Shown: in pieces, positions 1 to 22,800 of the stretch | How positions within the stretch are numbered: position 1 is the stretch's first letter | Layout of the letters: every line of letters starts with the position of its first letter | Assembly (NCBI GenBank): GCA_963965975.1 | Contig: OZ014416.1 | Span: forward strand, 4,402,001 to 4,466,000 | DNA: 64,000 bases | Direction: 5' to 3' | Origin: Xestospongia bergquistia | Taxonomy: Eukaryota > Porifera > Demospongiae > Haplosclerida > Petrosiidae | Made by a program: the position numbers and the translations under genes | Notes under the pieces: model-generated | What the model saw: the letters and a program-made list of their open reading frames with translations, nothing else | Databases searched by the model: none | Told to the model about the DNA's origin: nothing

Positions 1-763
1 AGCAACAACTTATGCGCTAACTGTTGAAACTAAATTGTCATTTTGATATCTATTATTCAGCCACTATACTCTTTTAGAGAGTGAGAAGATATTTTATTAA
101 GTTAAACCAGATCTCCTTCATGTTAAGTGTTTCTCCTTCATTTCATTAGTCTAGAACTGACAAAATACAATTTTTATCATCTACAACAGAAATTTTGGCC
201 TATCTAAGTTATATTAAATTTATGCTGGTAAAATTAATTGTGAAGCTAGTAATCCTAGTATATTAGCACAAGCATTGTGAACGAGTGTTCAAAAGCTGTT
301 ATTGAAGAGTGTTTAGATGAATAGGTTATACAGGTTATGGAGCCTTTTGTCATGAAAGAGATAGAAACAGTTAAATTACTTACTGTTATTATTTAGCAAG
401 ACAAGTTTTCTGGCAATATATGAAAACTATTGTTAGGCTTGGAAAGACACTGGAGTCTTTCTGAACATTAATGTTCTATCACCAATTTATTTTCCATTAC
501 AAGGGTAATGAACAGCCATTTCGTGACTGTGTGGTTTGAGGTAGTTATTGTCTATTATAATAACCAAAATATAAACAAAAGATGTACTACTAGTAAAACT
601 CAAAGCTGTCATTACTGTAGCAAATATCTTGAAATGTTGTTATTATACGAATATTGTCACTATGAAGTAACTGATTGACATTATACATTTATCTACTGTA
701 GTATTGAACAATTATTAGTAATTAATTTGTGGCCATGTTATTTACTGTTTATTCCTTCTATAG

Positions 764-862
764 AATCATGCAACTGCTTTGCATAATGCTTCAAGGGCAG
801 GACACATTGAGATAGTCCAGCTACTCTTATCAGCAAAGGCAAACCCCAATATTTGTGACAAG
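764..862 (+). CDS. Ankyrin-repeat exon, copy 1
   Basis: This is a 99-nt phase 0-0 exon encoding one 33-residue ankyrin repeat. It carries the hallmark TALHNAS turn, then GHIEIVQLLL and a PNICDK end. It is preceded by a pyrimidine-rich acceptor ending TATAG and followed by a GTTTTT donor. Its sequence is nearly the same as the exon at 1546-1644, and the introns on both sides are duplicated too. A further upstream copy is likely just outside the window, because the sequence opens inside the same intron type. Confidence 0.8.
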
Positions 863-3800
863 GTTTTTATTATATAGAGAGATGGTTTATATTTCATGTA
901 TTTGTGTATTGTGTTTACTCCATGTACATGTATGTAATACTAGTCTACTAGTATGTATTATATCAGTACAGGATATTACAATAATATACATGTACATGGA
1001 CATCATTAAACATGATACAGTCAACATGAACTATCAACAACTCATGCCCTAACTGTTGAAACTAAATTGTCATTTTGATATGTTTATTTAGCCGCTATAC
1101 TCTTTTAGATAGTAGTAAAGTATTCTATTAATTTAACAAGCCTGATATTCTTTATGTCAAGGGTTTCTCCTTCATGCATTTTGTTAGTCCAAAACTGACA
1201 AAATACAATTGTTCTAGTTTACAACCAAAACTTTAGCCTATCTAAATTCTATTAAATTTGAGACTGGTAAATTAATTATGAAGCTAGTGTGTACCTATTA
1301 TTCGAACAAACATGTGTATATATGGAAAGGGTTGTGTCCATATTGGAGAGGTGTCTATAATAGAAATATTAAAATGCAATGTCACCAATACTATCTACTA
1401 TTATAGTAGTTATTTTTATAAAGTAAAGATTATGCTTTGTCTGTTATCTTTTAATTAGTAAGGCTTAGAAAATTTTTGAAATTTTATTGTCAGTTCTTAG
1501 TAATTATTTTGTAGCCACCTCATTTATAGTTTATTCTTTTTATAGGATCATTGGACTGCTTTGCATAATGCTTCAAGTGCAGGACACATTGAGATAGTTC
1601 AGTTACTATTAACAGCTAAAGCAGATCCCAATATTTGTGATGAGGTTTGTGTTATATATTGAGATAATTTATATTCCATGTGCTTGTGTATTATGTTCAC
1701 TTCATGTACATGTATGTAATACTACTAGTATGTATTATATCAGTACAGGATATTATAATAATGTACATGTATATCACTGACAACATGAACCAGCAACAAC
1801 TTATGCCCTAACTGTTGCAATTGTCATTTTCAATGTCTTGTATTCAGGCTCTGTACCCTTTTAGAAAGTAGCTTTCAGAGAGTGCCTATATTTTCTGCCA
1901 ATAAGTCTGGTCTGGCTTTGGCTAAAGTACCATTAGTCCCAGCCTTTTCCCAGTTCAGAGACAACATGTTTGCAAGTACAGCACCCTTCTGCAGACTAAA
2001 TCTAATTACCCACTTTGATACTCCATTGCCCTTTAGAGTTTTTTAAAAAATACTTGGTAAATTGGTGGCAAAGGTCAAGTCTCTAACTTCGTAGATATGT
2101 GAAAGCTACTTATTGACAATGTTGTCACAATAGAATAGCTGTTGCCCTCACACATAACCCTTTAGCAGAGTCAGGCCATCCTCAAACCTACTAGATGGAT
2201 ATGATTTGACTTAGCCTCATACCCAGGCTTTCGCGAAAGAAAAGAAAGCCTGATAACTACTGTTTGCGCATGCGTTTAATTTCGCAGATTTCTTGGAAAA
2301 TAGTATACTCTAGGAATCCTTCGTTAACTATGACATCAAAATTCCTTTTACTGCAATGTCAGATTATTTGTGATGGCTACTTGTAGTACAGTTATTCACG
2401 AACCCCAATTGTTTTGCATCCCAACAGCACTGAACAAGTATTTTGCTCTTTTGGCTCCAACTAAATCTCTGCACAACTGATAAACTCAACTAGCCATGCT
2501 TAAACTCATGTAGTGAATAGAATGTCATCAATATAAACCCAGCCCATCAATTTGTCATTTAATTTATAATATGTCATTATGATGTGATGTCAACATTTTC
2601 AATAACTAAGTGCATGCGCAAGCTTTCTTTTCTATCATGAAAGCCTGGGTATGAGGCTAGATCTGACTATGAGCCTCCTTACCCTATCTTTGCAATATAG
2701 TTTGGGATGCAGTTTTTTTTTTACTTCCAAGCAGCAGCTGATCCACTCTCTGGATTAGTTGGAATTGAATCCTTGTCAATTAATATACTTTATAGGGCCA
2801 ACCCTACAAGCAACATTTTCAAGCCATATCCATTGTGCCAGGAGGCGAATCACTCAATAAATGCATGTGTGCCAGCAGTGCCAACTTCCCTCCTTCAGAG
2901 TAACATTGTCCAAGATCCAATTCACTCTTGAATAAGCTTGAATATGTAAGTCGTGGAACCAGGTTGTTGTATGATGCCTAGTATCTTCTCTTACAAACAC
3001 CAATGTGACACCTGTATAGAGGGTCCATTTCCAGAGACTACTGCCTTGCTTTTGACGACTTCATTTATAAAAGTTTCGAAAGTTACTGCTATGGCCACCT
3101 ATTAATTCAGTTGGCCAGGCCTATCATCTTTTCACTAACAGCAATCTGACTTGAGTCCACCAACCTGGTATTCCTTAATATGCCAGGTCTTCATCAGTCT
3201 TACCACCATAGTACCATCAGTCACATATGTCAGTCTATTCAATCACTCTCATGTGTACCATTGCCACTTATGTATATATATATATATATATATTCTCCAA
3301 CCTGACTCAAGGCAAACTATTCTGTTGTTATTGATCAGACATTATTAACTTATTCACGAATGAAGTACAATTGAGTGGTTGTATTATGTATATATCTTCA
3401 TGCAGTCCATATGGGGTATGTGTCCATGGGTCCAGACTTACCAGTGACTTCATGGCTTACATAGCTCTGGCTAATTCACTCTCATATCTTCCCACAGAGC
3501 TCTCAAACTACACCAAGAATCTGTAGGGTCTGGAAATACTCCACCTACTTCACAGAACCAACATTATGTCCACTCTGTTGTTAGTATACATACCTCTTTA
3601 TATTCAAATGTGTGAGGCCACTCTGGCTGACCATCTGGACCAGTGTTTTCATGTCCTACCCACTACAAGGTTTCAGGCATAGCTTCTGCATTGGCTTTGA
3701 TTACTCTCAGTATCGATTAGTCATTAAGTTACATTAAAAAACACACCTCTTAAATGACCTTTATAGCTTTTTGAAGGTTTTAGCACTTGATCATAGCTAC

Positions 3801-6800
3801 CGGTAAGTCATCTTTATGCTTTCTTTCGTTAATCTCTTTCCTTGTAGTAGAGCACAGCTGCCAGTAATATTGCACCTTGAATGATAAAAATGCTTGTTAA
3901 AGAGTAGTGCTGTTTTTCACATGTATATGTACATGTGTCATGAGTGATGACTTACTGTGAAAGAAAGGACAGATTGCATGTTCATATATTTTTACATTAC
4001 TTATTATCTACTTGATAAAGACAGAACATACTTGTTTTGAGTATCCTAGAGTAACCATAATGCCATCCTGATATCCACTCCTAACAATTTGACATTTTTC
4101 TATTGCCCTTAAAAGGGAGGATGAGCTACTTAGAAAAGCTATAGTCCAGTTATCTCAGTATATACAGACAATGTACAGGTCAGAACACTTCACTGTTTCC
4201 TCCAATATGATTATTTCTATCGATTTATTGGAAATTGTCTACAATTACAACTACTGTAGTAATAAACCACCTATTATTATTATTATTTATTTAGTACTTA
4301 CAGTCACATTTATTAGACAATAATTACTGATTATACTAATATGTTTAACAGTCACTATCATGTCTTCATTAATGTTATTGATTTAGTCATATAAAATCAG
4401 AGCACACAAGAATTGTAACTGTTCACATGACATGAATTCTTTTTACACAATTCATAAAGTCTGTTTGACTTTACCTTTCATAACATTGTATTATATTCTT
4501 ACAATATTTACCATTTGACCATACTCTGAGAATTATTGACTAGATGTTTAAATGAAGCATTTTACACAAGTCAGATATTGCAGTTTAGAAATAATACGTA
4601 TGGACATATATTCAGATCAGGATTCTTTACAAAGGGTGTGGTTTATGATGTGGTTTCTTTATGTGCTTGTATCTTTTTTCTTCAATATTGAATTTGTGGT
4701 CTTAATGTGTTAACTTGTTTAATGACTCAATATTAATGTCATATAGTGACATCATGAAATGAGATAGAACTAATAAAGAGAATATGTTACTACTACAGAT
4801 TGTTTATCACAAATGTTAGCTGCTATTGGTAGTTCGTATTGAATATGTTGAGACGTTGTGCAGTTACTTCTCATATTATACAATGTAATACAATTGATGA
4901 CTGGTTACATTGACTATATACAGTAGGAAGTCACTTATTCGAACACACTGGGACCGGGGCATGTTCGGATAATCAAAATGTTCGGATAAGTGAACATCTT
5001 TACAGATACTGTAATGTCTGTATATACCCATGTACATGTATTACACAAACATTTTATTTTACGTTGAATATCATACTGACATGTAATATATACACGTTAT
5101 ACAAAAGAGAACCAATATTAATTGGAAAAGTAATCTTTGATTTGTGTTTGTTTCTTAGTTATTAATCTCTTTCGTGCTTTTTCCAACAATAGTCCATTGA
5201 GTATTACTACAGTATCCATGGGTGTGGTGGGTTGCTGCTCAAGATACGTAAGCACTGTCTGTAGTGCATTGCAGGCAGTTGCATGAGAAACAGTTACTTA
5301 AGTGATTCCTTCTTCATCTTCTAATTCTTCTTCAGTACATTCTGTATCCTCCTCTCTTACAATTGATACAATTTCATCTTCTGAAAATTCTCGATAGCCA
5401 GGGTCATCTTTATCAGCTTTGAGCCAGTCTTCCTTTACAACGCTCTTGAGCAAACCAGAGATACACTGCTTTGTCTAGCGCAAAAAATTAGCCCTTTTCA
5501 CTGTCATCCTCTTCTTAACACAGCCTTCATCTCTATTCTGTGTCTGAAAGTCCTGTAGTTTCTTTTTGTTTTTCACGATATCATGAACAGTGGATTTTCC
5601 AACGCTATACTTGTCTGCCACGCACTGCATAGTTTTTCCATTTCTAACTAGCTTGCATATGTCGAGTTTTTCACTTATAATGAGTACCGTTCGTTTTCTC
5701 TTACGATTAGAAACACTAGCAATGCTAGCCATATCTCTAGCTGCTCACTTGTTGAAAATGGCCACGTGTTAGTGGGTGTGGTGCACAATGGCATTCGGTT
5801 AATCGACGTGTTCGGATAAGCAACGTCCTACTGTAGTTTACTGTCTAATAGTTCATTTTCTTTTGTAGTTATATAACTTCATCTCTTATGTGTTTAGAGA
5901 AGTTGTATAATAATCATGAATGATGATGTCAACTACATGCTAAAGTGCCATCTTATGGTTTGTACTTTATTAGCTGATACTTAAAATAACGTATATAGTT
6001 TTTTGTTTTGTTTATTGCATGAATATGATCAATAATAACAGACTATTATAGTTGAAATACGTTCACTTAGTTCACTATTACATACATAGCAAACAATGTC
6101 ATAACAATAACAATTACTAGATTCACAGTAATCATGTAATGATGCATTGATACTACATTGGCTGTAAATATCACTTCTTTGTGTACCATCAAGTGAATGT
6201 GCAACTCATCACTAGTAGATTGGATAGCAGATAAGCTGTTTCTTGAGTACTCAAAAATCATGTTTGTCAACACAGCATAACATTGCAGCTTGTAATGCCT
6301 TAAAGTATTTTTGATGTTACCATGGTGATCACTACATGAACTAACAACTGGTGTTAATAAGTTTTCAAGTATGGTTCACCTTTTACTGTATACTTTGCTG
6401 TATATCTCTACCACAAGTATTTACATCACTAATAACCTACGTATCAACTTTGGTTCTCCAATGTGTAGTAATACGTGGGTTCATTTCTACAAGTAATTAA
6501 AGTGTTTTGAACAGTACTTTTGGAAATTTTTATCAAATGTGGCAAAAGAATGAGGTAAAGTGTATGATGTTGTACAGCTGTGGCTGGACATCTTCTTTTT
6601 TAAATATTTTGGAAAATACTGACAGTATGTCTCTGCATATTCTTTCTTAGCTTGTTGCTAGGTTCACTGTCTGTATTGCTGAATGTCCCACTAAGGCTTT
6701 GACCAATACTTTGACAATGAACAGCTCTTACTTGGCAGCATTATTTTCATACTCCAGGATCCTAGAAACTATCAATGAAACAGCTATAATTGGACCACAT

Positions 6801-9800
6801 TATGCATGTGTCGAAAGCTTGAGCAAAACATTACTAGTTTTTAAAAAAGTGTTTTGGTAAAACATTCACATCTCCTCCGGTATTGATCTTAAAAGATTTG
6901 ACTTTATCTACATTTAATATTGCTATTTCAGCTTCTACTGTTCCCAAAAAGTGTTCTTTTTAAGTTCTCGGACACTATTGACTGAATGACACAAAACCTC
7001 ATAATGTCCCCATCACCACTTTTGAGAAATACCTTCCTGGGCTGGACATACATTTATACATTTATTGCCTGAAAAGACCTTATTGCCATAGCTATTTCAA
7101 AATTTTCAGAAACAATGTCCAAACTTACTCTATGTTCAATTTATTTCTTTTAATGTCATGGAAAATTCTCAAATATCAAACCCACGAAATTACATAATCC
7201 AAGGGATCATTTAATCCATAGTAAAATAAAACAGCACATAATTTCCAATAGCAACAGCACATATGTCATGATAGCGACAGTTACTACGCAAAAGAATTTA
7301 CATTGCAATAGCAACAATTACTCTAGCAATAGCATGTATGTCACCATAGCAACTGTTACTATAGAAACAATAACATTAGTTCTTTAGATAGATACTTGAT
7401 TAATAAAAATTGTTGTCTTTGCTTCAAAATCAAGCAATACTTTAGTAGGTCTTGAAGTTTCCACTGCATCATGTTTTCCTTGAATATGTTTGATCAAATA
7501 TTTAATTGGCTTCTTTATTTTGTTGGTTACTAGGAAGTAAAACATATGAACAGCCTTGAGTTCTAAATCATCATCATCATCATTTGCTATTCTTTCATTT
7601 TCTGTATCCACTTTAATTGTCAGTATTTCTTGTTGTACATCAATGACTAGAAAGATAGCAATAGATGGTAAATTGAAATATCTTTTTAAACAGATTGTTG
7701 TGTTTCAACCAGTGTATTTTTTCCAGAACACGGTGTCTTTGAACATGAGAGTCATGGTGAGTATTCTTTCACCATAAATTTGAATCTTATGATGTTATTG
7801 TAAAGCTAATCAGGAAATAAACCTTTCAGATTCTTGGTGTCTTTCATGGTCTCCTTGCCTTGTATTTTTTAGTCTCTTGATCTAAAGAGAAAAACGTTTC
7901 TACAGCATTTTCTTGGATCATTATGTTTACTTATTTGACTCGATTGTCATCTTTGATGATCTTTCTGTCTTGTTTTTTCAGTCTCTGCATTTGTTGATCA
8001 AATCTCCATTATAGTTATCTCTTTCTCTTTGCTTCTCTTTCTATATCTAGCTAAATGTTGTAAGTAATTGTGGGTTGGCTCAGCAAAGTCAATAACAGAA
8101 GTAACCTTGTATCCTTTCCATTTAACCTTTGTCTGACATGTTGCTGCTGCTTGATCTTTGGACATGATGTTATTTGCTTGATGTCGAAGGTATTTTCCCC
8201 CTCTTCTATCTTTTTCTCTTTCTGTCAAATACTAACATAGAGCTATAAAAGTATTGGACCTGTAAATGTCAATCTCAATACACATGATGCAGGGGAAACT
8301 GCTGATTGGTACTTATGCATGTCAAAGGTATTACACTGGGGACTGCTTTAAATATGAAAAATCTAATCAAACCTTCTACATTTCATTTTAGTGAGGTCCT
8401 TGATAAAGGTGTGTTACAATTTCACCACAGGGACATTGATTATATGTAGTGATGTAGACATCTATAGTCAAAGATAGATTTTCTTTGATTTTAATACTAG
8501 CCACTTTACTGTCTACTAGACATAGCCTACATCACTTACTCTGTCAACTCTAAGGAGTCAATTAACTTTTTTTCTCCAATATGAAAATTAGATAAACACT
8601 TCCAATTTTGTCATGTACTGTGACATTATTAAATCATATACATGATGTCCATTGTAGAAGCTGCTACTTCAAAGTAGAAGAGGGTTGAAATGTAATTAGA
8701 ATCCTTTTCTGGCATGCCAAAATATAATTTTGCTACACATTTGTAGTTGACAGCTGCTTCTTACAAGCACTCCCTTTACTACCATCTATTGCAGACAATG
8801 AAAAGCCCTAAATTGCAGAACCTTTACCACAGTTTCTGTAGTGATGTTGGTTTGTTTGCAATTGCAATTCTGCCATTGCATTATAACTCACGAAATACTT
8901 CGAATAAAATAGACAACAGTATTGTATGAAGATTTCTTACTTTTTGCAAATGATGCTAAGAGTGTTGCACTATCAATATTCTATGATCAGTAATAACCAC
9001 AACAACCTTTCTCTTGAGCACCTTGAAGAATCTCATTGCCCATTAACAAATACAAGGAATGATTAGGAAGACATTATAAATTTGATGATTATGAGTACTA
9101 GAACTGAGAAATGTGTCCAAAATTGTTGTTAACATTAAGTACACAATGAATTTAATCAACAAGTACTTCATAGACTTCCTAGCCATTAAATTAATATCAT
9201 CACACCAAGACAGTGTAAACATTTTATAAAAATGCCTTCTTTGTTGCCCAATGAAGTGTTTTCAATAAAAGTGTGTACACAACAATATCATGTACAAAAT
9301 TAAATTATAAATATCTTTGTAGAAACCAGTAACAATATTCATGTACATAATGGTACTATGAGGTTTGTCAAGGCTAAAGGGTATTTTTTGTGTGAGAGTG
9401 AGTGGTGTTTATAACATGTATATTTCTACTATTTTACTTGTTTAATATTGAGTTTGGGTGTCTTGATATCCTAGATTTGTTAGGAAGAATAATAATCTAA
9501 ATCATTCACTGTAGAAAAAGTACAAAAACCAAAATTAAATGTCAATGATGTTTCTATCAATATTATTTTTCTTTCTTTTAACATCCAATGTAACACATGA
9601 TTGCTGTTATAACATTCAGATAAACAAAGTTTCATTCTTGCTTTATTTGGAAATTACATAACATTATCATACATTATAATCCAGATTTTATTAATCATAA
9701 ATATAAATATAATTTTATTCTTCACAGTATGGGGATTCCCCCTTACATCTTGCTTGTGCTAATAGTAAAGTAGATGTGATTTCATATCTACTTCACACTG

Positions 9801-12800
9801 GAAAAGTTGATCCACTTGCTCTTAACAATCATGGGAAAACACCACTAGAAGAAGTCCGACTGAATGATCCAAACAGATTTGAAATATTAAAGATTTTTGA
9901 GCCATTTGCCAAAAGTCGTCAAGACTATCCAGTTGATTCATATAGAAAAGTAATTTTTTGTGGAAACATATCAGCTGGAAAGAGTTCATTAGCCCAATGC
10001 ATTATATATCGTGCTGATAAACCTGTTGATTATCACTACAACCCCTTTCAATGCATTAAAGGTGTACAATTAGAAACTGCTGGTATTAACTATAATAATG
10101 TTCGTAGTCATGAAGTTGGAAATATTATTCTTTATGATTTTGCTGGTCATCAAGAATATTATAGTAGTCATGCAGCTATATTAGAGAATCTTATGTTGAG
10201 AACCCCTGCAGTTTTTACAATAGTGATAGATTCAACCAAAGGTTTTGACTACTTTAAGAAACAGTTGTATTACTGGTTTAACTTTATTGAAAATGTTTGT
10301 GCTAATTTAATGAAACCATCTCAAGTAATTATTGTAGGAAGCTATGCTGATCAATTTACCAGTAGTTATGATGAATTCAAGTTGCATGTTGATTATGTTG
10401 TTAAAAATGCTATTCGTAAACAAGAGTATAGAGGTTTTGTTGCCATGGAGTGTCATCGCCCAGGTGGAAAAGGTTTCCCTGAATTCATTTGTCACCTTTA
10501 TGAAAGTTGCAAGGCTGTTCTTGATAAGTCGGATACCATTAGTTATTATTGCCATGTGCATTATGCCTACCTCCAAAAATTACAGAATGTAGCTATTAGC
10601 TTTAAGGAGCTTATTGATAGCCTAAAAACTCTTGCTGATCCGTCCCTCCCTTCAGATGAAACAGTATTGCTAGACTACTTGTCAACTCTCAGTGACAAAG
10701 GTCTTGTTCTGTTTCTGAGAAATGAAATAGTGTCTAATAGTTGGATTGTAGTCGACAAATCAAACCTCCTTGCTGAAGTTAATGGTGTTCTTTTTAATAA
10801 GAACATCAAGCATCTTCCTATACCAACCTCTAGCAACACTGGCATTGTCCATGTTTCTGTTTTACAAGAGCTCTTTCCAGCTTATGATACAAGTATGCTT
10901 ATTGATTTTTTGAAAAGCATGGAATTTTGTCATGTTTTCAATTCAGAAATAGTGAATACTATTACAACCAACCTGTCTTCATCAGATGACATATCTAATG
11001 TTGACATTCTTTTCTTTCCAGCTTTTGTTGCCACAGAGCCTCCTTCAGATTTAAATGAACGTGTCAAAAGTGGGTTTGGTTGGTGCTTGTATTGCCCTAA
11101 TCCATTACAATTCCTCTCTGTTCGCTTCCTTCACATTCTTTTGCTTCGATTAGCATATTCTGATTATTGTCCTATTCATAAACCTATAGCTGGTGAATTA
11201 GAGTCTCTTATACAGCAGTTGAATCGTTATTGTACAGTCTGGAAGAATGGTATTTATTGGAATTATATCAATGACGTAGTAGTAGAAGTTACAGATCATA
11301 ATAGATGTGTCACTGTATTTGTTTCCAATGACAAAGGAGTTAAAAGTCAAAAAATATGTTGCTCTATTATAAAACTGGTTCTTTCTCTTCAAAAGAAGTT
11401 TTGTCCATGTAAAATCAATGAGTACATCATTCCTTCTGGATCTTTAGCTGACATTCGTAGTAAGGAGATTTCAAAACAAGTACTCTATCCACTAAGTGCT
11501 GTGGCTCTAGGAATAGTAAGTAACAAAGAAATCCTTGACCATAATGGAGTTCAAGGCAGTATCGATTGGATTTGTCCACATGAGCCGTATATCTCCCTTG
11601 CACCAGCAGTTATCCATGCATTATTTTCCAGAAGCAAAGGCAATGAAGTTATTCCAGATAGATTTCTTCACCACATAAAAGAATTTGCTCCCAGTATAAT
11701 GTCATCTTTTAATACATCCAAAGGGAGCACCTATTCTGATGTCGCCAGTCATCTCAATGACTATAGCTTTTTCACTGGACGAAATCCATTGGTAAGTTAC
11801 AATACTATATTAAACTTAATACTTGTCTTCATTAATATATTATATATGAGCCTGCCTATACATCTTTATATGTGAACATAGTTAAATATTTTAATTTATA
11901 TCTATAGCTTATTCATTTCAAATATGTATTTAATTTAATTTTAGGATCTATTGATTTCACCTTTAACATGTGATGAGATACTAAATATATCAAAAGATCA
12001 CCTTCAATCAAATAATATTTCAACACTGAAAGGTTTGTTTTGTCAAATTTATTTGTATATCTAATAACATTATATAGACTGTGTTCTGTTCTTACGTTTT
12101 TTTGATCATTTTTAAATCACTAGGAAAAACTCCTAAGAAAGGTGACCTCCTACAGCAAATGTCAGGGATTTGTAGTTGGTGGCACACTATTGGTGAATGT
12201 CTTGGAATTGAAAGTGGAGAACTGGATTGTTTACATTTTTTTAATCAGCGTGATGTTGACAAACTTTCTAAAGTCCTACAAATTTGGATGGATAGAATAA
12301 CTAAACCTGTTACATGGAATACCATTTTAGAAGTAATAGGAAGTCCACCTATCCAAAATAAATCTGTTGTGATGGATATAGAGAAGTTTTTAGAATGTGA
12401 GTACTTATGTAATATTCCCAGTAATTGTACTTTTGTTAAACTTCGCATGTATGTTTTCACTTAAACATGCATTGGCATAGGAAAACATAAGATTTTGTGA
12501 TAAGAGAAATTGTTTAACATTGATACTTTACTTATGATTGCCTTTGTAAATTAGTAATCATCATAGTTATTGTATACTATTATTTATGTAGCCCAAACAA
12601 AGGGAAGTACTGACATTTGTGATGCTGATCTGTTGGAACTATTGGCCACAACTGGTAAGATATTAAAATTTACTGGTTCACTATAGATCTTCCATATATA
12701 GTTATGACTTAGCAATTACACTCAACTAAAGTATATTTATCTGGTAAATGCATATACTAAAAATATATACTGTGTCTAGTAATTGGTTTTCTAACAAAAA

Positions 12801-14028
12801 CAACACATCCTTTTGTACTAATGATTGTTTATAATGATATCTATGTTTTTCAGTTGTGCTCCATTAAGTTTAGTAATTTTCTGATACACTATAGTGTCAT
12901 CATACTCATTGTACATACATGCACTAATATATTATATATTTATTTTTATGTCATAATTTCATAGATGTAACACAAATAGACAAAGACAAGATTGAGCAGC
13001 AAAGTAATGGTAAGTTAATATTACTACACGATTACATAGTGATTACTATATAACTAATTTAATTATATAAATATCCTTCACAATATGAGTAAAAGCGTTA
13101 ATAAGGCTATTACTGACAACAGTAAGATTATTAGTAGTAAGTTTATCATGACTATAATTAGTGGAAAGATGATATATATTATTTATTTTATTTATATTCT
13201 ATTCATTCTGATATATTGTATTCTAAGCCAGACCCAAACTGACTTGATATCTTTAATTATAACATTAAAGTTTTAGGGATTATTACAATAGTTACTAAAT
13301 TACTACTTTCCTTACAGTAGGTACCCTAGAAGAAAATATAGTTGACAGTAGTAGGACTATAACTGGTAAGGTGATGTCATTATGTTTGGCTAAATGCATA
13401 ATGTATACATTAGAGAAAATAGACGATATTATTTACCTTAAAGCAAATATACTTACTACATTCAGCATATAAACAGGGCTCAAGTTTAGTATATACTTGT
13501 ACTAATTGTTTACTACTTGTTTACTACCTGTTCTTTAATTTAGTTACATTTCCTTTTACTGCTACATTGTGTAGGCAATATTGATCCATCAGAAATATTT
13601 TTGGATTACTTTGCTGATATTTGTGATGCCATTGAAGTTAAACCTCTTCCTATTGTTAATCGGCTCCTTACTGCTAGATTGATATCATTAAATTTTAAGA
13701 AAGATGTAGAAAATATGAGTGGTGAAGCTTACGACAAAGCAAATAAAGTAGCCAATGAGCTACAACAACAGGTTGAAGAAAAAGGAATTGAGTTTTTAAA
13801 AGCTATTTGTGACTTCCTTCTAAAGCAGAACCAGGAGTTAAAAGACATTGGCACAAGAATGAAAAGTCAACTAGAAAGTGAGACATTTTATTATACAATA
13901 CTATAATTATATTAGAAAATTACTATTTCTATAAGTGAGTCTTTAATGATGTTATAATTTAGTAATCTACTGTATATGACTAATGTCTTTACTTTCTATA
14001 TGCTGCAGGCTTAGCTCCACCGACTTAG
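764..14028 (+). CDS. ANK-ROC-COR-Death-CARD-like protein gene, 3' part (ten exons joined)
   Basis: I joined ten exons whose splice phases all agree: 764-862, 1546-1644, 9728-11791, 11945-12032, 12124-12396, 12592-12654, 12965-13009, 13321-13365, 13575-13877 and 14009-14028 (TAG stop). Every intron starts GT and ends AG. In order, the product has ankyrin repeats, a ROC GTPase with a P-loop, a COR-like region, a Death domain, a short variable linker and a CARD-like death fold. Known family: ankyrin-ROC-COR-Death is the C-terminal layout of death-associated protein kinase 1, a ROCO protein. Here the start is off the window, so a kinase can be neither confirmed nor excluded. Inferred role: cytoplasmic GTP-regulated signalling adaptor in a cell-death or innate-immune type pathway. 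The extra C-terminal CARD-like domain is not part of DAPK1. The model is from sequence alone; small linker exons could be missing or optional. Confidence 0.8.
1546..1644 (+). CDS. Ankyrin-repeat exon, copy 2
   Basis: Second 99-nt phase 0-0 ankyrin exon (TALHNASSAGHIEIVQLLL, ending PNICDE). The acceptor is TATAG and the donor GTTTGT. It joins in phase to the exon at 9728, which continues YGDSPLHLAC, the start of the next ankyrin repeat. It differs from the exon at 764 at only a few positions, so the duplication looks recent or homogenised. Confidence 0.8.
2212..2659. mobile_element. MITE with long terminal inverted repeats and 9-bp target duplication (Mutator-like)
   Basis: The left end TAGCCTCATACCCAGG at 2212 is repeated in perfect inverse orientation at 2644-2659. 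The inverted match continues, with a few mismatches, for about 40 nt. The flanks are GATTTGACT (2203-2211) and GATCTGACT (2660-2668), an 8-of-9 direct repeat that fits a target-site duplication. A 9-bp duplication is typical of Mutator-like elements; an 8-bp hAT duplication is the alternative. At about 448 nt with no open frame, it is non-autonomous. Confidence 0.75.
3272..3293. repeat. (TA)n microsatellite
   Basis: Short run of alternating T and A inside the retroelement scrap. Confidence 0.9.
3741..4918. other. Intronic AT-rich sequence, nothing recognised
   Basis: This stretch lies within the 8.1-kb intron between 1644 and 9728. I see no ORF with protein-like composition and no strong splice pairs. 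There is a short ATT trinucleotide run near 4273-4290. Confidence 0.5.
4921..5833 (-). mobile_element. Tigger/pogo-type (Tc1/mariner superfamily) DNA transposon, internally deleted
   Basis: Both ends carry an inverted repeat starting CAGTAGGA and running through CTTAT-CGAACAC; 22 of 26 terminal positions match. TA dinucleotides flank both ends (4919-4920 and 5834-5835), the target duplication used by this superfamily. At 913 nt it is far shorter than an autonomous Tigger-like element. It encodes, on the minus strand, only the two ends of a Jerky/Tigger-type transposase. It inserted into the long intron of the ROC-COR gene. It would depend on a full-length relative for movement. Confidence 0.85.
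5298..5732 (-). pseudogene. Tigger/Jerky-like transposase remnant: CENP-B HTH joined to C-terminal tail, DDE core missing
   Basis: From the ATG at 5732 the reading runs through an N-terminal helix-turn-helix of CENP-B/pogo type (EKLDICKLVRNGKTMQCVAD, then YSVGKSTVHDI). A one-base shift plus a TAG at about 5475-5477 interrupts it. The next frame, at 5441-5477, reads LDKAVYLWFAQER, the start of the second CENP-B HTH. The sequence then jumps at about 5440 straight to an acidic tail ending at a TAA (5298), with DWLKADKDDPGY and a Glu/Asp-rich end typical of the transposase C-terminus. The whole catalytic DDE domain between these parts is absent, so the product could at most bind DNA, and then only if the frameshift were bypassed. 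Confidence 0.8.
5836..6650. other. Intronic AT-rich sequence, nothing recognised
   Basis: No coding-like reading on either strand beyond short open frames of low-complexity composition. Confidence 0.45.
6660..7130 (-). pseudogene. Degenerate LTR-retrotransposon gag-pol fragment (zinc knuckle and retropepsin-like)
   Basis: Read on the minus strand, about 7000-7070 has a cysteine/histidine spacing like a CCHC zinc knuckle, broken by a TGA where the second cysteine region should be. Further on, about 6840-6930, a short stretch resembles the aspartic protease active-site loop. It has Asn-Thr-Gly where Asp-Thr-Gly is needed, followed by Gly-Asp-Val and Leu-Pro. The order (knuckle, then protease) is that of Ty3-type elements. 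The catalytic aspartate is lost and stops are present, so this copy is dead. No terminal repeats were found. This is an endogenous retrotransposon fossil inside the ROC-COR gene intron. Confidence 0.5.
7245..7372. repeat. Degenerate tandem repeat with ATAGCAAC-GTTACT motif
   Basis: The motifs ATAGCAAC and AGTTACTA/ATTACTCTA recur at roughly 25-60-nt spacing, often alternating. This resembles the interior of a small repeat element. No terminal repeats were identified. Confidence 0.5.
7384..7655 (-). CDS. Unrecognised minus-strand exon-like ORF
   Basis: A CTTTCTAG acceptor at about 7656 on the minus strand opens a frame that stays open to a TAA at 7384. The peptide has a run of aspartates (NDDDDDLELKA) followed by a basic amphipathic stretch (NKIKKPIKYLIKHIQGKHD) and ends FINQVSI. 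I know no family for it. It could be a relic exon of a transposon nested in the intron, or a shadow. The acceptor and mixed composition make it more plausible than neighbouring open frames. Confidence 0.3.
7998..8228 (-). CDS. Unrecognised small minus-strand ORF, possibly part of the same relic as 7384-7655
   Basis: 76 codons from ATG to TAG, hydrophilic and basic. The middle (KVKWKGYKVTSVIDFAEP) is balanced in composition and looks protein-like; the end is Arg/Lys/Glu-rich. The minus strand between this ORF and 7655 also holds an exon-like patch (QENAVETFFSLDQETKKY), so a decayed multi-exon gene or transposon on this strand is possible. No domain recognised. Confidence 0.25.
   Translation of the reverse strand: MTEREKDRRGGKYLRHQANNIMSKDQAAATCQTKVKWKGYKVTSVIDFAEPTHNYLQHLARYRKRSKEKEITIMEI
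8229..9727. other. End of the long intron, nothing recognised
   Basis: AT-rich DNA without supported genes. It ends with a pyrimidine-containing acceptor (TTCTTCACAG) immediately before the large ROC-COR exon. Confidence 0.5.
9728..11791 (+). CDS. Large exon: last ankyrin repeat, ROC GTPase and COR-like region
   Basis: This exon has 688 codons, phase 0 at both ends. It opens YGDSPLHLACANSKVDVISY and NNHGKTPLEE (ankyrin). The ROC domain follows: P-loop GNISAGKSSL at about 9962-9990 (the GK-S/T consensus is intact), the switch-II motif DFAGHQEYY at about 10135-10160, and VGSYADQ at about 10334-10355 where the guanine-specificity motif should be. The last has aspartate but lacks the usual NK/TK; related ROC proteins often have H-A-D there. 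After about residue 240 of the exon, a winged-helix-like stretch (LDYLSTLSDKGLVLF, then WIVVDKSNLLAEVNG) matches the COR pattern of ROCO proteins. The downstream part to 11791 is less distinctive. The donor is GTAAGT at 11792. Confidence 0.88.
11945..12032 (+). CDS. Linker exon between COR and Death domain
   Basis: This 88-nt exon has acceptor TTTTAG and donor GTTTGT, and starts in phase 0. It encodes DLLISPLTCDEILNISKDHL followed by a short polar tail, and leaves one base that completes a glycine codon in the next exon. The pattern (two helices, LLxxxLTCDEI) looks like the lead-in to a death fold. Confidence 0.7.
12124..12396 (+). CDS. Death-domain exon
   Basis: This 273-nt exon is phase 1-1. 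The reading contains WWHTIGECLGIESGELDCL, then a KLSKVLQIWMDR helix and VTWNTILEVIGSPP. The order of conserved tryptophans and leucines (W..IG..LGI...L..L, then L..W, then W..IL..IG) is the Death-domain signature. It supports homotypic adaptor binding. It lies just after ROC-COR, as in DAPK1. Confidence 0.82.
12592..12654 (+). CDS. Symmetric linker exon 1 (63 nt)
   Basis: Phase 1-1 exon, acceptor ATGTAG and donor GTAAGA. It encodes SQTKGSTDICDADLLELLAT, a polar then leucine-rich stretch, between the Death and CARD-like exons. Because it is in-frame and symmetric, it could be skipped without a frameshift. Confidence 0.6.
12965..13009 (+). CDS. Symmetric linker exon 2 (45 nt)
   Basis: Phase 1-1 exon, acceptor TTCATAG and donor GTAAGT. 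It encodes DVTQIDKDKIEQQSN, hydrophilic. The phase matches the exons on both sides. Confidence 0.55.
13321..13365 (+). CDS. Symmetric linker exon 3 (45 nt)
   Basis: Phase 1-1 exon using the second of two AGs (CTTACAGTAG), donor GTAAGG. It encodes GTLEENIVDSSRTIT. A similar unassigned segment at about 13096-13140, ending near a GTAAGT, may be a further optional linker exon, but its phase does not fit cleanly. Confidence 0.55.
13575..13877 (+). CDS. CARD-like death-fold exon
   Basis: This 303-nt exon is phase 1-1, acceptor TGTGTAG and donor GTGAGA. The reading shows successive amphipathic helices: EIFLDYFADICDAIE, then IVNRLLTARLISLNF, then a KANKVANELQQQVEEKG helix and FLKAICDFLLKQN before a final DIGTRMKSQL. 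The helix order and the spacing of leucines match CARD-type adaptor domains. No profile search could be run; a DED or other death-fold member is possible. A broken duplicate of this exon is at 19549-19882. Confidence 0.65.
14009..14028 (+). CDS. Terminal exon with stop codon
   Basis: After the acceptor TGCTGCAG, the frame carried from the CARD-like exon reads SLAPPT and stops at TAG (14026-14028). It is a 20-nt last coding exon. No canonical AATAAA was seen in the following 300 nt. Confidence 0.65.
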
Positions 14029-19548: not shown

Positions 19549-19882
19549 AGTTACATTTCCCTTTACTTGTTATATTGTATATGTAATTTTGAGCCATCAA
19601 ATACAATAATATGCTAATATTTGTGAAACCATTGAAGTTAAACACCTTCCCATTATTAACCTGCTCTATTCTGCTAAGTTGATATCATTTCATTTTAAGG
19701 TAGATGTACAAAATATGAGTGGTGATGATTATGACAAAGCAGACAAAGTAGTTGATGAGCTAGAACAACAGGTTAATGACAAGGGAATTCAGTTTTTAAA
19801 TACTATTTGTGGTTTCCTTCTGAAGCAGAACCAGTTAAAAGACATTGGTATGGAATGAAACATCAACTAGAAAGTAAGAGGT
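19549..19882 (+). pseudogene. Broken duplicate of the CARD-like exon
   Basis: This segment aligns with 13541-13885, including the intron just upstream (GTTACATTTCC-TTTACT). The acceptor GTAG has become GTAA, an upstream TAA enters the frame, and a deletion plus TGA (MetGlu-stop) ends it early. In between, about 75 codons stay open (ICETIEV, then YDKADKVVDELEQQV and FLLKQNQ) with many substitutions relative to the functional exon. Some downstream flank also matches (CTTATGGCTGCTGC). So this is a duplicated, now dead 3' gene segment about 6 kb downstream of its parent. Confidence 0.8.
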
Positions 19883-22800
19883 TCTAATTATTGTACAAGT
19901 CCAAGTTAAGATTTTAGTGAATGTACTTAAACTTAGATAGTCTAGAGTGTTCTACCATTTGTTTTTAATCTTATGGCTGCTGCTTTTTTATAATTTTTTG
20001 CTAAAGTACAAAACAAATAAATTATTAATATATCAGTAATTTAAAAGTCAAGGAATTCATTTAAAAAAATACATAGCACAATATGTGTCATTGTAGCCCA
20101 TCTAAGAGAAACATTTAGCACTAACTTTTTAAGGGACAAAATTTGGCAAATTGCATTCTATTGATATGCAGTAAATATTATTTGTGTATTATAAATTGTA
20201 GTTTGATGCCTTAGTTACAAAATAATGAGTTCATTAATCTGTTTTCATTTGTCATAGGTACATTTACTACATAAGTAATTCACTTTGAAAACTGATGATG
20301 TCCATTATTTATCAAGCTCCTTTTCTGTTGTACAATGCAAGACTATTAACAATGTTAATAAAGTTCTTAAATCACACTGTTCCATTGGTTATATTTGTTG
20401 CTGTCTAATATATTTAGAAGATTATATCGGTATCTGTACGTTTTACTATAGACTTGTTGCTTATATACAATTTTGTATCAAAACAATAAAAATTAATGGA
20501 GAGACAACTAGTACTATTTCATCATTGATAGTGTAAGTGCAAGAAAGACGTATCTCAAGAATATTTTCTAAGAATGTTTTCTATTCACTGGACAAATTGT
20601 GTTTCTGTGACATAAAACAGCTGGAAACGTTTTGAAAATGTCAAGTATTCTGTTGTGTTTCTAGCATTTCCAAACTGAGAAAACATAAAGATTTGCTTTG
20701 ACAGGAAACTCATGCGAAGAGTAAATAACTCAGAAAGATAACTTCATTGTCATGTCAACAACTTAAACAATAACTGAGTGCTTGAAATGACCCAACACTT
20801 CATGGACATGATATAAAATGTACCATAAAAGTTTAAACAAAAACATAGGTGGTTACATTTCTTCCTCTCCAGGAAAGGGAAAGAGTGAGGACAATAAACT
20901 GGCAATCTTCATTTTCATTACACTCTTCTGAGCTCATCATGTTACCAGTGAAACAAACTCTCCACTTTGTTTTAATAGCATCAGATAGGCCAGCTGTTCA
21001 ATAATATTCAGTAAGTCTTCATTGCAGTTTTTATTAAAAAATATTTTAAAAAGAGGAACAAATAGATTATTATTTACATTATCATGACATTGGTGTCATT
21101 TTTTAAAATAGAAATTTCAATTGTATTAATTAAATGGTATGAATAAATTACTTTAGTTATCGTCTGTTTATCATACTTATTAGAATACTTTTCTGAATTT
21201 GTGAGCTTTGCCTTAATGTAATAACTTGAAAAATATGTTTTAGAAGCATCTATAAAAAGATCATAATTAGTTTGATGAGGAATATGCTACAACTGTAATA
21301 AAAATACTTAATAATCCACACATTATACTATACATAATATTTATAATTTCAACAGATATACTAACATATTTATCGAGTTGATAATATTACTAACAATTAA
21401 TAGCTGGAGTAGTTACATCAGGAAATAAGATTTCACTTCTGCTACTAATCTCTTTAATATCAATATACAGAAGACAGTGCTCTAAGTAGAGGTAGTGTTA
21501 TTAATACCTAAAGTTCTATTCAATGTTCTCATCTTCTTTATACAAAGCTAAATATGTTTTGCGTACATAATCCTAGATAATAGAAATTATTATAACATGA
21601 TGCGTGGGTGGGTCATACAGTACTGTACATACAATCAACTTTACTATTACTTTGTGATGGGGAAGAGAGAAAACATCTTAAGACTTTTGACACGATTTAC
21701 AGTGTACTGTTACTTCAGAAATGCACACCCACTTGACTGAATTGACTGCACACATAATATGGTAGTGTTATATATAATATTGCTAGTTTATATATTACAA
21801 TTTTCCTAATAACTGTATGTGGTTATAAATTTAAGGTATTTGCACTATTTAAGATTTTAAAAATTTTTTAAAAGAATGTATGAAATTAAAAATTAATTTT
21901 AACAATATCTAAAACTTAAGATCAGGAATTCTAATTCAGCATTATACACATTATATCAAAAATTTAAAAATGGAGGGAAATCTACAAGACAAAATATAAC
22001 CTAATAGTTCAAGTAACAAACACTGATACAGTCTACTAAATAAAGTATTAGATAGCAACTAACATAACAAAATATAAAAGGGAGACAATATCCAAAGAAC
22101 ATGTAACCTACAATAGAAAAGAACATGTAGTTATTATGACTTATTACATATTAAAGAGTTTGTTATTTGTATAGTCTTTGTCTCTTTGAGTATTATTGTA
22201 TATAACAACACACTAGTATTGTTAATATCATTACAAGATTGTGATCAGTTAATTCATTTAATAGAGAAAAACATGTCAGGTATTTCTTTTACATTTTATT
22301 TAGCTATATTCTGAAAAAATGGTCCCTTTATGACATCCAAAGTGGTATTCCAAATGACAGAAGTACCTTCACCTTGACCATTCATGTCAAACTACTTAAG
22401 AATGATGTGATCAAGTCTTGTTAGATTTGAGTAATTAGATTGAGCCAAATATTGAAGGTCACTGTAATTCACCCAAGAGGGACCTCTAAAGGAGAAATCA
22501 ATACTTAATATGATTAAATTACTATATTATTACTACATTACTATAGTATTTTATAATTATGATACAGGTCAGTTGCTTAGATACATAGAGGATCGAGTGA
22601 AATCATCTTTGTGAGGTAACTATGTCTGTCCTACTCAGTAAGTGTTAAAACAATTGTCAGTGAAACTGAGTTTTTAGATGCTGTTAAAATAAAGCTAGTA
22701 CATTATAAAAACATACACATATAGTCCTATCTACTTTGCCTTCCTCTATGGTCTTCACTTTGATTACCATCCAGATGTTTTTGCACTATCTGTTGCTAGC

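What the first reader, a model, noticed from the sequence alone, without database searches (positions are those of the whole stretch)
9728..14028. ROC-COR protein ending in two different death folds (Death plus CARD-like)
Splice phases join ankyrin, ROC, COR and Death exons, as in the C-terminal half of DAPK1, to a further CARD-like exon. An ankyrin-ROC-COR-Death-CARD order would place a GTPase switch next to two separate homotypic adaptor domains. I do not know of this combination in vertebrate DAPK1. It could be a lineage-specific signalling hub.
Basis: partly seen in the sequence, partly recalled or inferred. Interest (0 to 1): 0.72.

Follow-up and report, generated by a model that had tools for sequence, protein, structure and literature searches.

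The report
Ankyrin GTPase with Death and CARD
This animal gene appears to encode a switch protein of the ROCO family that carries two different cell-death adaptor domains (Death and CARD-like) at its tail, and the same unusual layout recurs in dozens of copies in this genome, which suggests a little-known family of intracellular immune or cell-death sensors.

Summary
Eight exons (9728-14028) splice into one open 966-aa frame with AG/GT borders; the six introns from 12033 on are all phase 1. Parts: ankyrin, ROC, a COR-position region, Death, CARD-like. In the host genome 48 of 94 ROC exons show the same-strand order ROC > Death > CARD-like. Of 150 CARD-like exons, 68 have a ROC/COR exon within 6 kb upstream, 7 downstream, 0 on the opposite strand. 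Profile-profile comparison assigns the last exon family to CARD and the middle one to Death (0 of 100 permutations each). The CARD exon is constrained (median dN/dS 0.28). No kinase was found upstream: not DAPK1, but a kinase-less, tandemly expanded relative.

Weak points: COR is not recognised; Death and CARD stay below Pfam's cut-offs; AlphaFold2 models show no clean CARD; no transcripts.

Unexpectedly, 26 of 99 caspase-domain matches lie just upstream of a COR exon; one such locus reads caspase-like > COR-A exon > Death > CARD-like, so two very different ROCO subfamilies share the tail. Best reading: GTP-switched sensors that nucleate death-fold assemblies. New variant of a known kind.

The parts
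764..862 (+). ankyrin-repeat exon (33 codons, phase 0)
   Evidence: frame NHATALHNASRAGHIEIVQLLL...; Pfam Ank 30.3 bits
1546..1644 (+). ankyrin-repeat exon (33 codons, phase 0)
   Evidence: Pfam Ank 29.5 bits
9728..9829 (+). last ankyrin repeat, in the same exon as ROC
   Evidence: Pfam Ank 26.1 bits, residues 1-34
9947..10342 (+). ROC GTPase domain with GNISAGKS, DFAGH, SYAD
   Evidence: Pfam Roc 30.8 bits over cut-off 27, residues 74-205; PDB LRRK2 ROC E 4.3e-4; motifs
10343..11791 (+). region in COR position (483 residues), presumed divergent COR
   Evidence: position and length; no Pfam COR hit in the window exon; 1 of 6 relatives hits COR-B at E 0.17; marginal hhalign match
11945..12032 (+). 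short linker exon
   Evidence: open frame, AG/GT
12124..12396 (+). Death-domain exon, phase 1-1
12592..12654 (+). linker micro-exon, phase 1-1, no methionine
12965..13009 (+). linker micro-exon, phase 1-1, no methionine
13321..13365 (+). linker micro-exon, phase 1-1, no methionine
13575..13877 (+). CARD-like exon, phase 1-1
14009..14028 (+). terminal exon with stop (SLAPPT*)

Best explanation
The gene encodes a probably cytosolic, kinase-less ROCO protein: N-terminal ankyrin array, ROC GTPase, a divergent COR-like region, then a Death and a CARD-like domain joined by a short linker. SHOWN by sequence: the joined frame, ankyrin and ROC, the recurrence of ROC > Death > CARD-like in many copies, and constraint on the CARD exon. 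INFERRED: the ankyrin array senses or docks a ligand; GTP exchange or hydrolysis in ROC-COR changes the dimer; this frees the Death-CARD tail to nucleate homotypic assemblies. Death recruits one class of partner and CARD another, possibly including sister proteins with the same CARD family, such as the caspase-like-ROCO-Death-CARD genes of this genome. It would work like an NLR-type receptor with a ROC switch in place of NACHT.
For: Open spliced frame and uniform phase 1; tandem paralogue with the same order next upstream (L012); 48 of 94 ROC exons in the order ROC > Death > CARD; within 6 kb, CARD exons have ROC/COR upstream in 68 of 150, downstream in 7, opposite strand 0; Death and CARD profile tests with permutation control; median dN/dS 0.28 over 29 comparisons; phase-1 donor in 27 of 30 and acceptor in 28 of 30 copies, the window's included, against 43 and 599 of 2000 random positions under the same tests; P-loop and DFAGH present; no kinase found; no methionine in the Death-CARD linker exons; a second subfamily with the same tail.
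Against: COR is not recognised by Pfam in the window exon and the profile match is marginal. Single CARD exons stay below Pfam's cut-off (best E 0.0017); among the 23 closest relatives EnY2 is hit by 5 and CARD by 2; PDB profile searches find no CARD; the closest-relative profile alone barely exceeds permutations (1 of 100). AlphaFold2 gives a 50-residue continuous helix and Foldseek no death fold among the 50 rows shown. No transcript, ligand or partner data. 46 of 94 ROC exons do not show the order in the lists used, and an 89% paralogue has no CARD within about 4.2 kb after its Death exon. The caspase-like domains lack the usual His motif by eye, so a proteolytic outcome is doubtful.
Confidence: 0.6

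Rival explanations
1. Two transcripts: an ankyrin-ROC-COR-Death gene, and a separate downstream gene or alternative last exons carrying the CARD-like domain; the CARD exon is optional rather than a constant part.
For: An 89% ROC paralogue has a Death exon but no CARD exon in the roughly 4.2 kb fetched beyond it; 46 of 94 ROC exons lack the full order in the lists; no RNA data.
Against: No methionine in the linker exons; matched phase-1 borders; recurrent order and strand bias; the same tail in the caspase-like subfamily.
Confidence: 0.2
2. The last exon is a generic helical bundle or coiled coil (an oligomerisation helix), not a CARD.
For: Low Pfam scores with unrelated families at similar E-values; AlphaFold2 gives a 50-residue continuous helix and Foldseek returns mostly coiled coils and helical bundles at E 0.24 or worse.
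Against: The diverse family profile matches CARD, not Death, DED or pyrin, and 0 of 100 permuted profiles reach the score; CARD is the family hit by most members of that set, 3 of 27; the models had 1 and 2 sequences only.
Confidence: 0.15
3. A true DAPK1 orthologue whose kinase exons lie further away or were missed.
For: Ankyrin-ROC-Death order as in DAPK1.
Against: No kinase in Pfam scans of 19.7 kb upstream or in a motif scan of 39.7 kb reaching beyond the previous paralogue (the 1.4 kb between that paralogue and L011 had the motif scan only); the gene is one of dozens.
Confidence: 0.03

Closest known systems
DAPK1 (third ROCO group)
   Same: ankyrin repeats, ROC, COR position, C-terminal Death domain
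   Different: no kinase found here (the calmodulin segment was not searched for separately); an extra CARD-like domain after Death; dozens of tandem copies. A review (PMC6337361, passages read) defines the group by the Death domain and a kinase before RocCOR
Invertebrate ROCO-TIR and ROCO-Death-TIR proteins (sea anemone NG1 and NG3; Aplysia ROCO-bearing TLR and MyD88-like)
   Same: ROC-COR shuffled with immune adaptor domains (PMC5094078 and PMC9334734, passages read)
   Different: TIR or kinase rather than CARD; no ankyrin-ROC-COR-Death-CARD order in the passages seen
NLRs with Death or CARD (NLRD and NLRC) of sponges
   Same: expanded family coupling repeats, a nucleotide switch and death folds (PMC12909245, passages read)
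   Different: NACHT and LRR with an N-terminal adaptor; here ROC GTPase, ankyrin and a C-terminal pair of adaptors
Brown-algal LRR-ROC-COR candidate immune receptors
   Same: expanded ROCO family with same-phase shuffled exons (PMC11378527, passages read)
   Different: LRR-ROC-COR only, no death folds; genes mostly dispersed in the species discussed

Membership tests
ROCO family | ROC GTPase domain | tested here: met
   Pfam Roc 30.8 bits over cut-off 27; 6 of 6 relatives aligned match Roc at E 1 or better
ROCO family | COR domain directly after ROC | tested here: inconclusive
   No Pfam COR hit in the window exon; COR-B E 0.17 in 1 of 6; hhalign 23.7 against a maximum of 21.75 in 30 permutations with one reference, below the maximum with two others
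DAPK1 | N-terminal calmodulin-regulated kinase | tested here: not met
   Pfam on 3 + frames of L011 and window 1-9728: ankyrin plus one chance-level hit; motif scan empty
DAPK1 | C-terminal Death domain | tested here: met
   10 of 10 aligned exons hit Pfam Death, best E 2.8e-4, and the profile matches Death references above 100 of 100 permutations; the window exon itself is below the cut-off (14.9 against 22.6 bits), and it is followed by another domain
CARD family | CARD sequence profile | tested here: inconclusive
   Profile-profile test positive and specific; Pfam single-sequence scores below cut-off, best E 0.0017, 18.8 against 23.9 bits
CARD family | six-helix death fold | tested here: inconclusive
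   AlphaFold2 with 1 and 2 sequences: mean pLDDT 68.6 and 79.6, three helices; Foldseek on the second model no death fold in the 50 rows shown of 140
CARD family | homotypic CARD-CARD assembly | not testable with these tools
   needs protein experiments

The most novel reading that the evidence does not exclude
An early-branching animal runs a ROCO-based counterpart of the NLR inflammasome: a large repertoire of ROC-GTPase receptors (ankyrin-headed and caspase-like-headed) sharing a Death-CARD tail, so that one switch drives two separate death-fold assemblies and the caspase-like ROCO proteins are the CARD partners of the ankyrin ones.
Probability: 0.25. Interest if true: 0.85.

Novelty: new variant of a known kind. 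Interest (0 to 1): 0.62.

Why it matters
ROCO proteins are known mainly from LRRK2 and DAPK1, where how the GTPase controls output is still debated. A kinase-less ROCO family whose only recognisable outputs are two death folds, present in dozens of natural variants, would let one ask whether ROC-COR directly gates Death or CARD assembly. It would also add a GTPase-switched receptor class beside NLRs and TLRs in animal intracellular immunity, and the same-phase exons suggest how adaptor tails were swapped.

Tried and rejected
DAPK1 orthologue: rejected, no kinase found. Chance splice of unrelated exons: rejected by recurrence, strand bias and dN/dS. COR by direct homology to the caspase-like ROCO exon: best BLAST E 0.18 and low hhalign probability; left inconclusive. 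Structure of the last exon: two AlphaFold2 jobs gave poor models; the Foldseek hits of the second were not interpreted. Solved-structure searches of the CARD-like exons found no CARD; the Death profile found a HetR chain at E 0.0032 and PIDD and RIPK1 at 0.56-1.1, HetR taken as chance. NCBIfam gave nothing useful. Silicatein test for a sponge: 10 active-site matches in the 20 of 76 loci fetched, all Cys type, so the host phylum is not settled; a sponge is my inference from the domain repertoire. A phage-collection search found nothing. In the coordinate tests I entered all 150 rows but only 99 of 150 rows, so Death counts are lower bounds; the first version held 50 of 150 Death rows and was superseded. 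The acceptor test is permissive: 599 of 2000 random positions pass, against 43 of 2000 for the donor test. The Death alignment A3 leaves out copies with a stop or cut by the locus end (seen); A1 holds 23 and A2 27 hand-picked CARD-like exons.

Papers: none of the listings described ROC-COR-Death-CARD, but they show only part of the matches and only titles and abstract starts: 20 of 481; 20 of 25; 15 of 71; 15 of 57; 8 of 8; 10 of 13; 10 of 134; 10 of 20; 5 of 43. Of the seven papers opened I read passages only. Subscription journals are mostly not held.

Full report
WHAT IS THERE. The window is G000:C6:4402001-4466000 of a 146.5-Mb genome in 21 contigs, evidently an animal by its introns and domains (the phylum is not established). 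On the + strand, eight exons from 9728 to 14028 join with AG/GT borders into one open 966-aa frame. The 688-codon first exon holds an ankyrin repeat, a ROC domain and 483 residues after it. The intron after 11791 is phase 0; the six later introns are all phase 1, so the Death exon, three linker micro-exons and the CARD-like exon are symmetric 1-1 modules. Two more ankyrin exons lie at 764-862 and 1546-1644, and another in the preceding locus (L011); by eye, further ankyrin-like exons lie around L011:6975-8230. That these join 9728 across an 8-kb intron is inferred; the first coding exon was not identified.

ROC AND COR. Pfam Roc scores 30.8 bits against a cut-off of 27 and Ank 26.1 against 21.1. 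Among the 60 shown of 222 PDB matches, those to the GTPase part are LRRK2 ROC domains (best E 4.3e-4; family profile E 1.3e-4). GNISAGKS, DFAGH and SYAD are present (the motif meaning is recalled). COR is not recognised: no Pfam hit in the window exon, one of six relatives hits COR-B at E 0.17, and a post-ROC profile match is marginal, 23.7 against a maximum of 21.75 in 30 permutations with one reference and below the permutation maximum with two others. I treat COR as inferred from position and length.

DEATH AND CARD. The Death exon alone has E 0.031; it and nine paralogues all hit Pfam Death, 10 of 10, best E 2.8e-4; where bits were shown they are below the cut-off of 22.6. The last exon alone hits no death fold; the L012 copy has CARD at E 0.076. 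Among 23 close relatives EnY2 is hit by 5 and CARD by 2; among 27 diverse relatives CARD is hit by most, 3 of 27, best E 0.0017, below its cut-off. Profile-profile comparison separates the two exons: the 27-member CARD-like profile against eight CARD references gives probability 75 and score 31.7, with a permutation maximum of 18.3 in 100 and 16.8 for the reversed profile, while Death, DED and pyrin references score 8.7-11.6, within the permutation range. The 23-member close profile gives only 20.7 (probability 9), with 1 of 100 permutations as high. The Death exon profile scores 20.8 against Death references (probability 9; 0 of 100 permutations reach it) and about 10.5 against the others. 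AlphaFold2 on the exon alone (mean pLDDT 68.6) or with one window relative (79.6) gives three helices, the last 50 residues long, and no death-fold match in the 50 rows shown; with so few sequences I count this as inconclusive, leaning against.

RECURRENCE. The next gene upstream (L012) has the same order: ROC exon, Death exon, CARD exon. Genome searches scored 65 of 348 and 64 of 238 candidates, 94 ROC exons in union; 62 have a Death exon within 1.5 kb downstream, 55 a CARD-like exon within 9 kb and before the next ROC, and 48 the full order. Of 150 CARD-like exons scored (218 candidates), within 6 kb 68 have a ROC or COR exon upstream on the same strand, 7 downstream and 0 on the opposite strand; within 9 kb the numbers are 71, 8 and 5. 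So 79 of 150 have none within 9 kb upstream: the module also occurs elsewhere, or beside ROC exons not scored. The tools state that such counts are lower bounds. Pfam COR-A gives 146 further matches, none overlapping the 94 exons.

CONSTRAINT AND MODULARITY. Against the window CARD exon, 29 copies give a median dN/dS of 0.28 (0.18-0.55; four are near-identical copies, so they are not independent). Of 30 copies, the window's own included, 27 pass a phase-1 donor test and 28 a phase-1 acceptor test; at 2000 random window positions 43 and 599 pass, so the donor test is the telling one. The linker between Death and CARD has no methionine, which argues against a separate CARD gene starting there. 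The CARD seems dispensable: an 89%-identical ROC paralogue has Death but no CARD-like exon in the roughly 4.2 kb fetched beyond it (L084), and some copies have two; in others CARD lies more than 4.5 kb away, so a more distant one is not excluded.

NOT DAPK1. The three + frames of L011 and of window 1-9728 contain ankyrin matches and one chance-level hit in Pfam (E 0.55), no kinase, and a motif scan of 39.7 kb upstream, both strands, was empty. A review places Death-bearing ROCO proteins in a kinase-containing DAPK1 group (PMC6337361, passages). This family has the Death domain without the kinase.

A SECOND SUBFAMILY. Caspase (Peptidase_C14) searching gave 99 matches; 26 have a COR/ROC exon within 2 kb downstream on the same strand, 0 have one upstream and 0 on the opposite strand; 13 are on C11 and 13 on C12. 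Seven of the 13 on C11 have an exon of the same CARD family within 4.6 kb after COR; 4 of the 13 on C12 have a listed Death exon after COR. One locus read in full (L085, C11) has, in order, a caspase-like frame with an internal stop (first part C14 52.9 bits, cut-off 21.4), a 703-aa frame with COR-A just over its cut-off (35.6 against 35.3 bits; Roc itself not hit), a Death frame (E 2.8e-4, 21.4 bits, cut-off 22.6) and the CARD-like frame (E 2.2e-19 to the window exon; Pfam CARD only 0.058). This Death frame was not in the Death lists, another sign that those are incomplete. Seven other copies read by eye lack the usual SHG motif; a Cys sits at the expected place in 4 of 4 on C11 and 0 of 3 on C12 (motifs recalled), so they are probably pseudo-caspases. 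The same Death-CARD tail behind ROCO exons that BLAST does not align significantly (E 0.18) is independent support for the architecture.

MECHANISM. Shown: the parts, their order, recurrence and constraint. Inferred: ankyrin sensing, a GTP-controlled ROC-COR switch, and release of Death and CARD to nucleate separate homotypic assemblies, with caspase-like ROCO sisters as possible CARD partners. Two sponges raise expression of some ankyrin, Death and CARD genes after microbial patterns (PMC6208332, passages), which fits an immune role but does not concern these genes directly. That the host is a sponge is my inference.

NOVELTY. ROCO proteins with TIR, or with kinase, Death and TIR, are described in anemones and Aplysia (PMC5094078, PMC9334734; passages), LRR-ROCO families in brown algae (PMC11378527, passages), and many Death-superfamily architectures in Amphimedon (PMC8195603, passages). 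I found no description of ankyrin-ROC-COR-Death-CARD in the partial listings. I rate it a new variant of a known kind.

Noticed in passing
G000:C11:6373978-6473670 and C12:5393780-5536559: Two clusters in which a caspase-like (Peptidase_C14) exon sits 1.1-1.5 kb upstream of COR on the same strand: 26 of 99 caspase matches. Seven on C11 also have the CARD-family exon; in L085 the caspase frame is preceded by a weak CAP-Gly match.
   Followed up: partly
window 19604-19855 (+) and 22302-22472 (-): Decayed second CARD-like exon (about 66% identical, with a stop) and a broken Death-like fragment on the other strand: remains of further copies.
   Followed up: no
G000:C13 3.41-4.04 Mb: Four near-identical ROC-Death-CARD copies, spaced about 190-220 kb apart: recent segmental duplication or assembly repeat.
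   Followed up: no
window 5475-5744 (-): ORF resembling a helix-turn-helix DNA-binding segment of a pogo/CENP-B-type transposase (by eye), inside the long intron.
   Followed up: no
G000:C6:7583731-7584515 and 7603943-7604726: Two ROC-Death genes carry two CARD-like exons whose starts lie about 490 bp apart.
   Followed up: no
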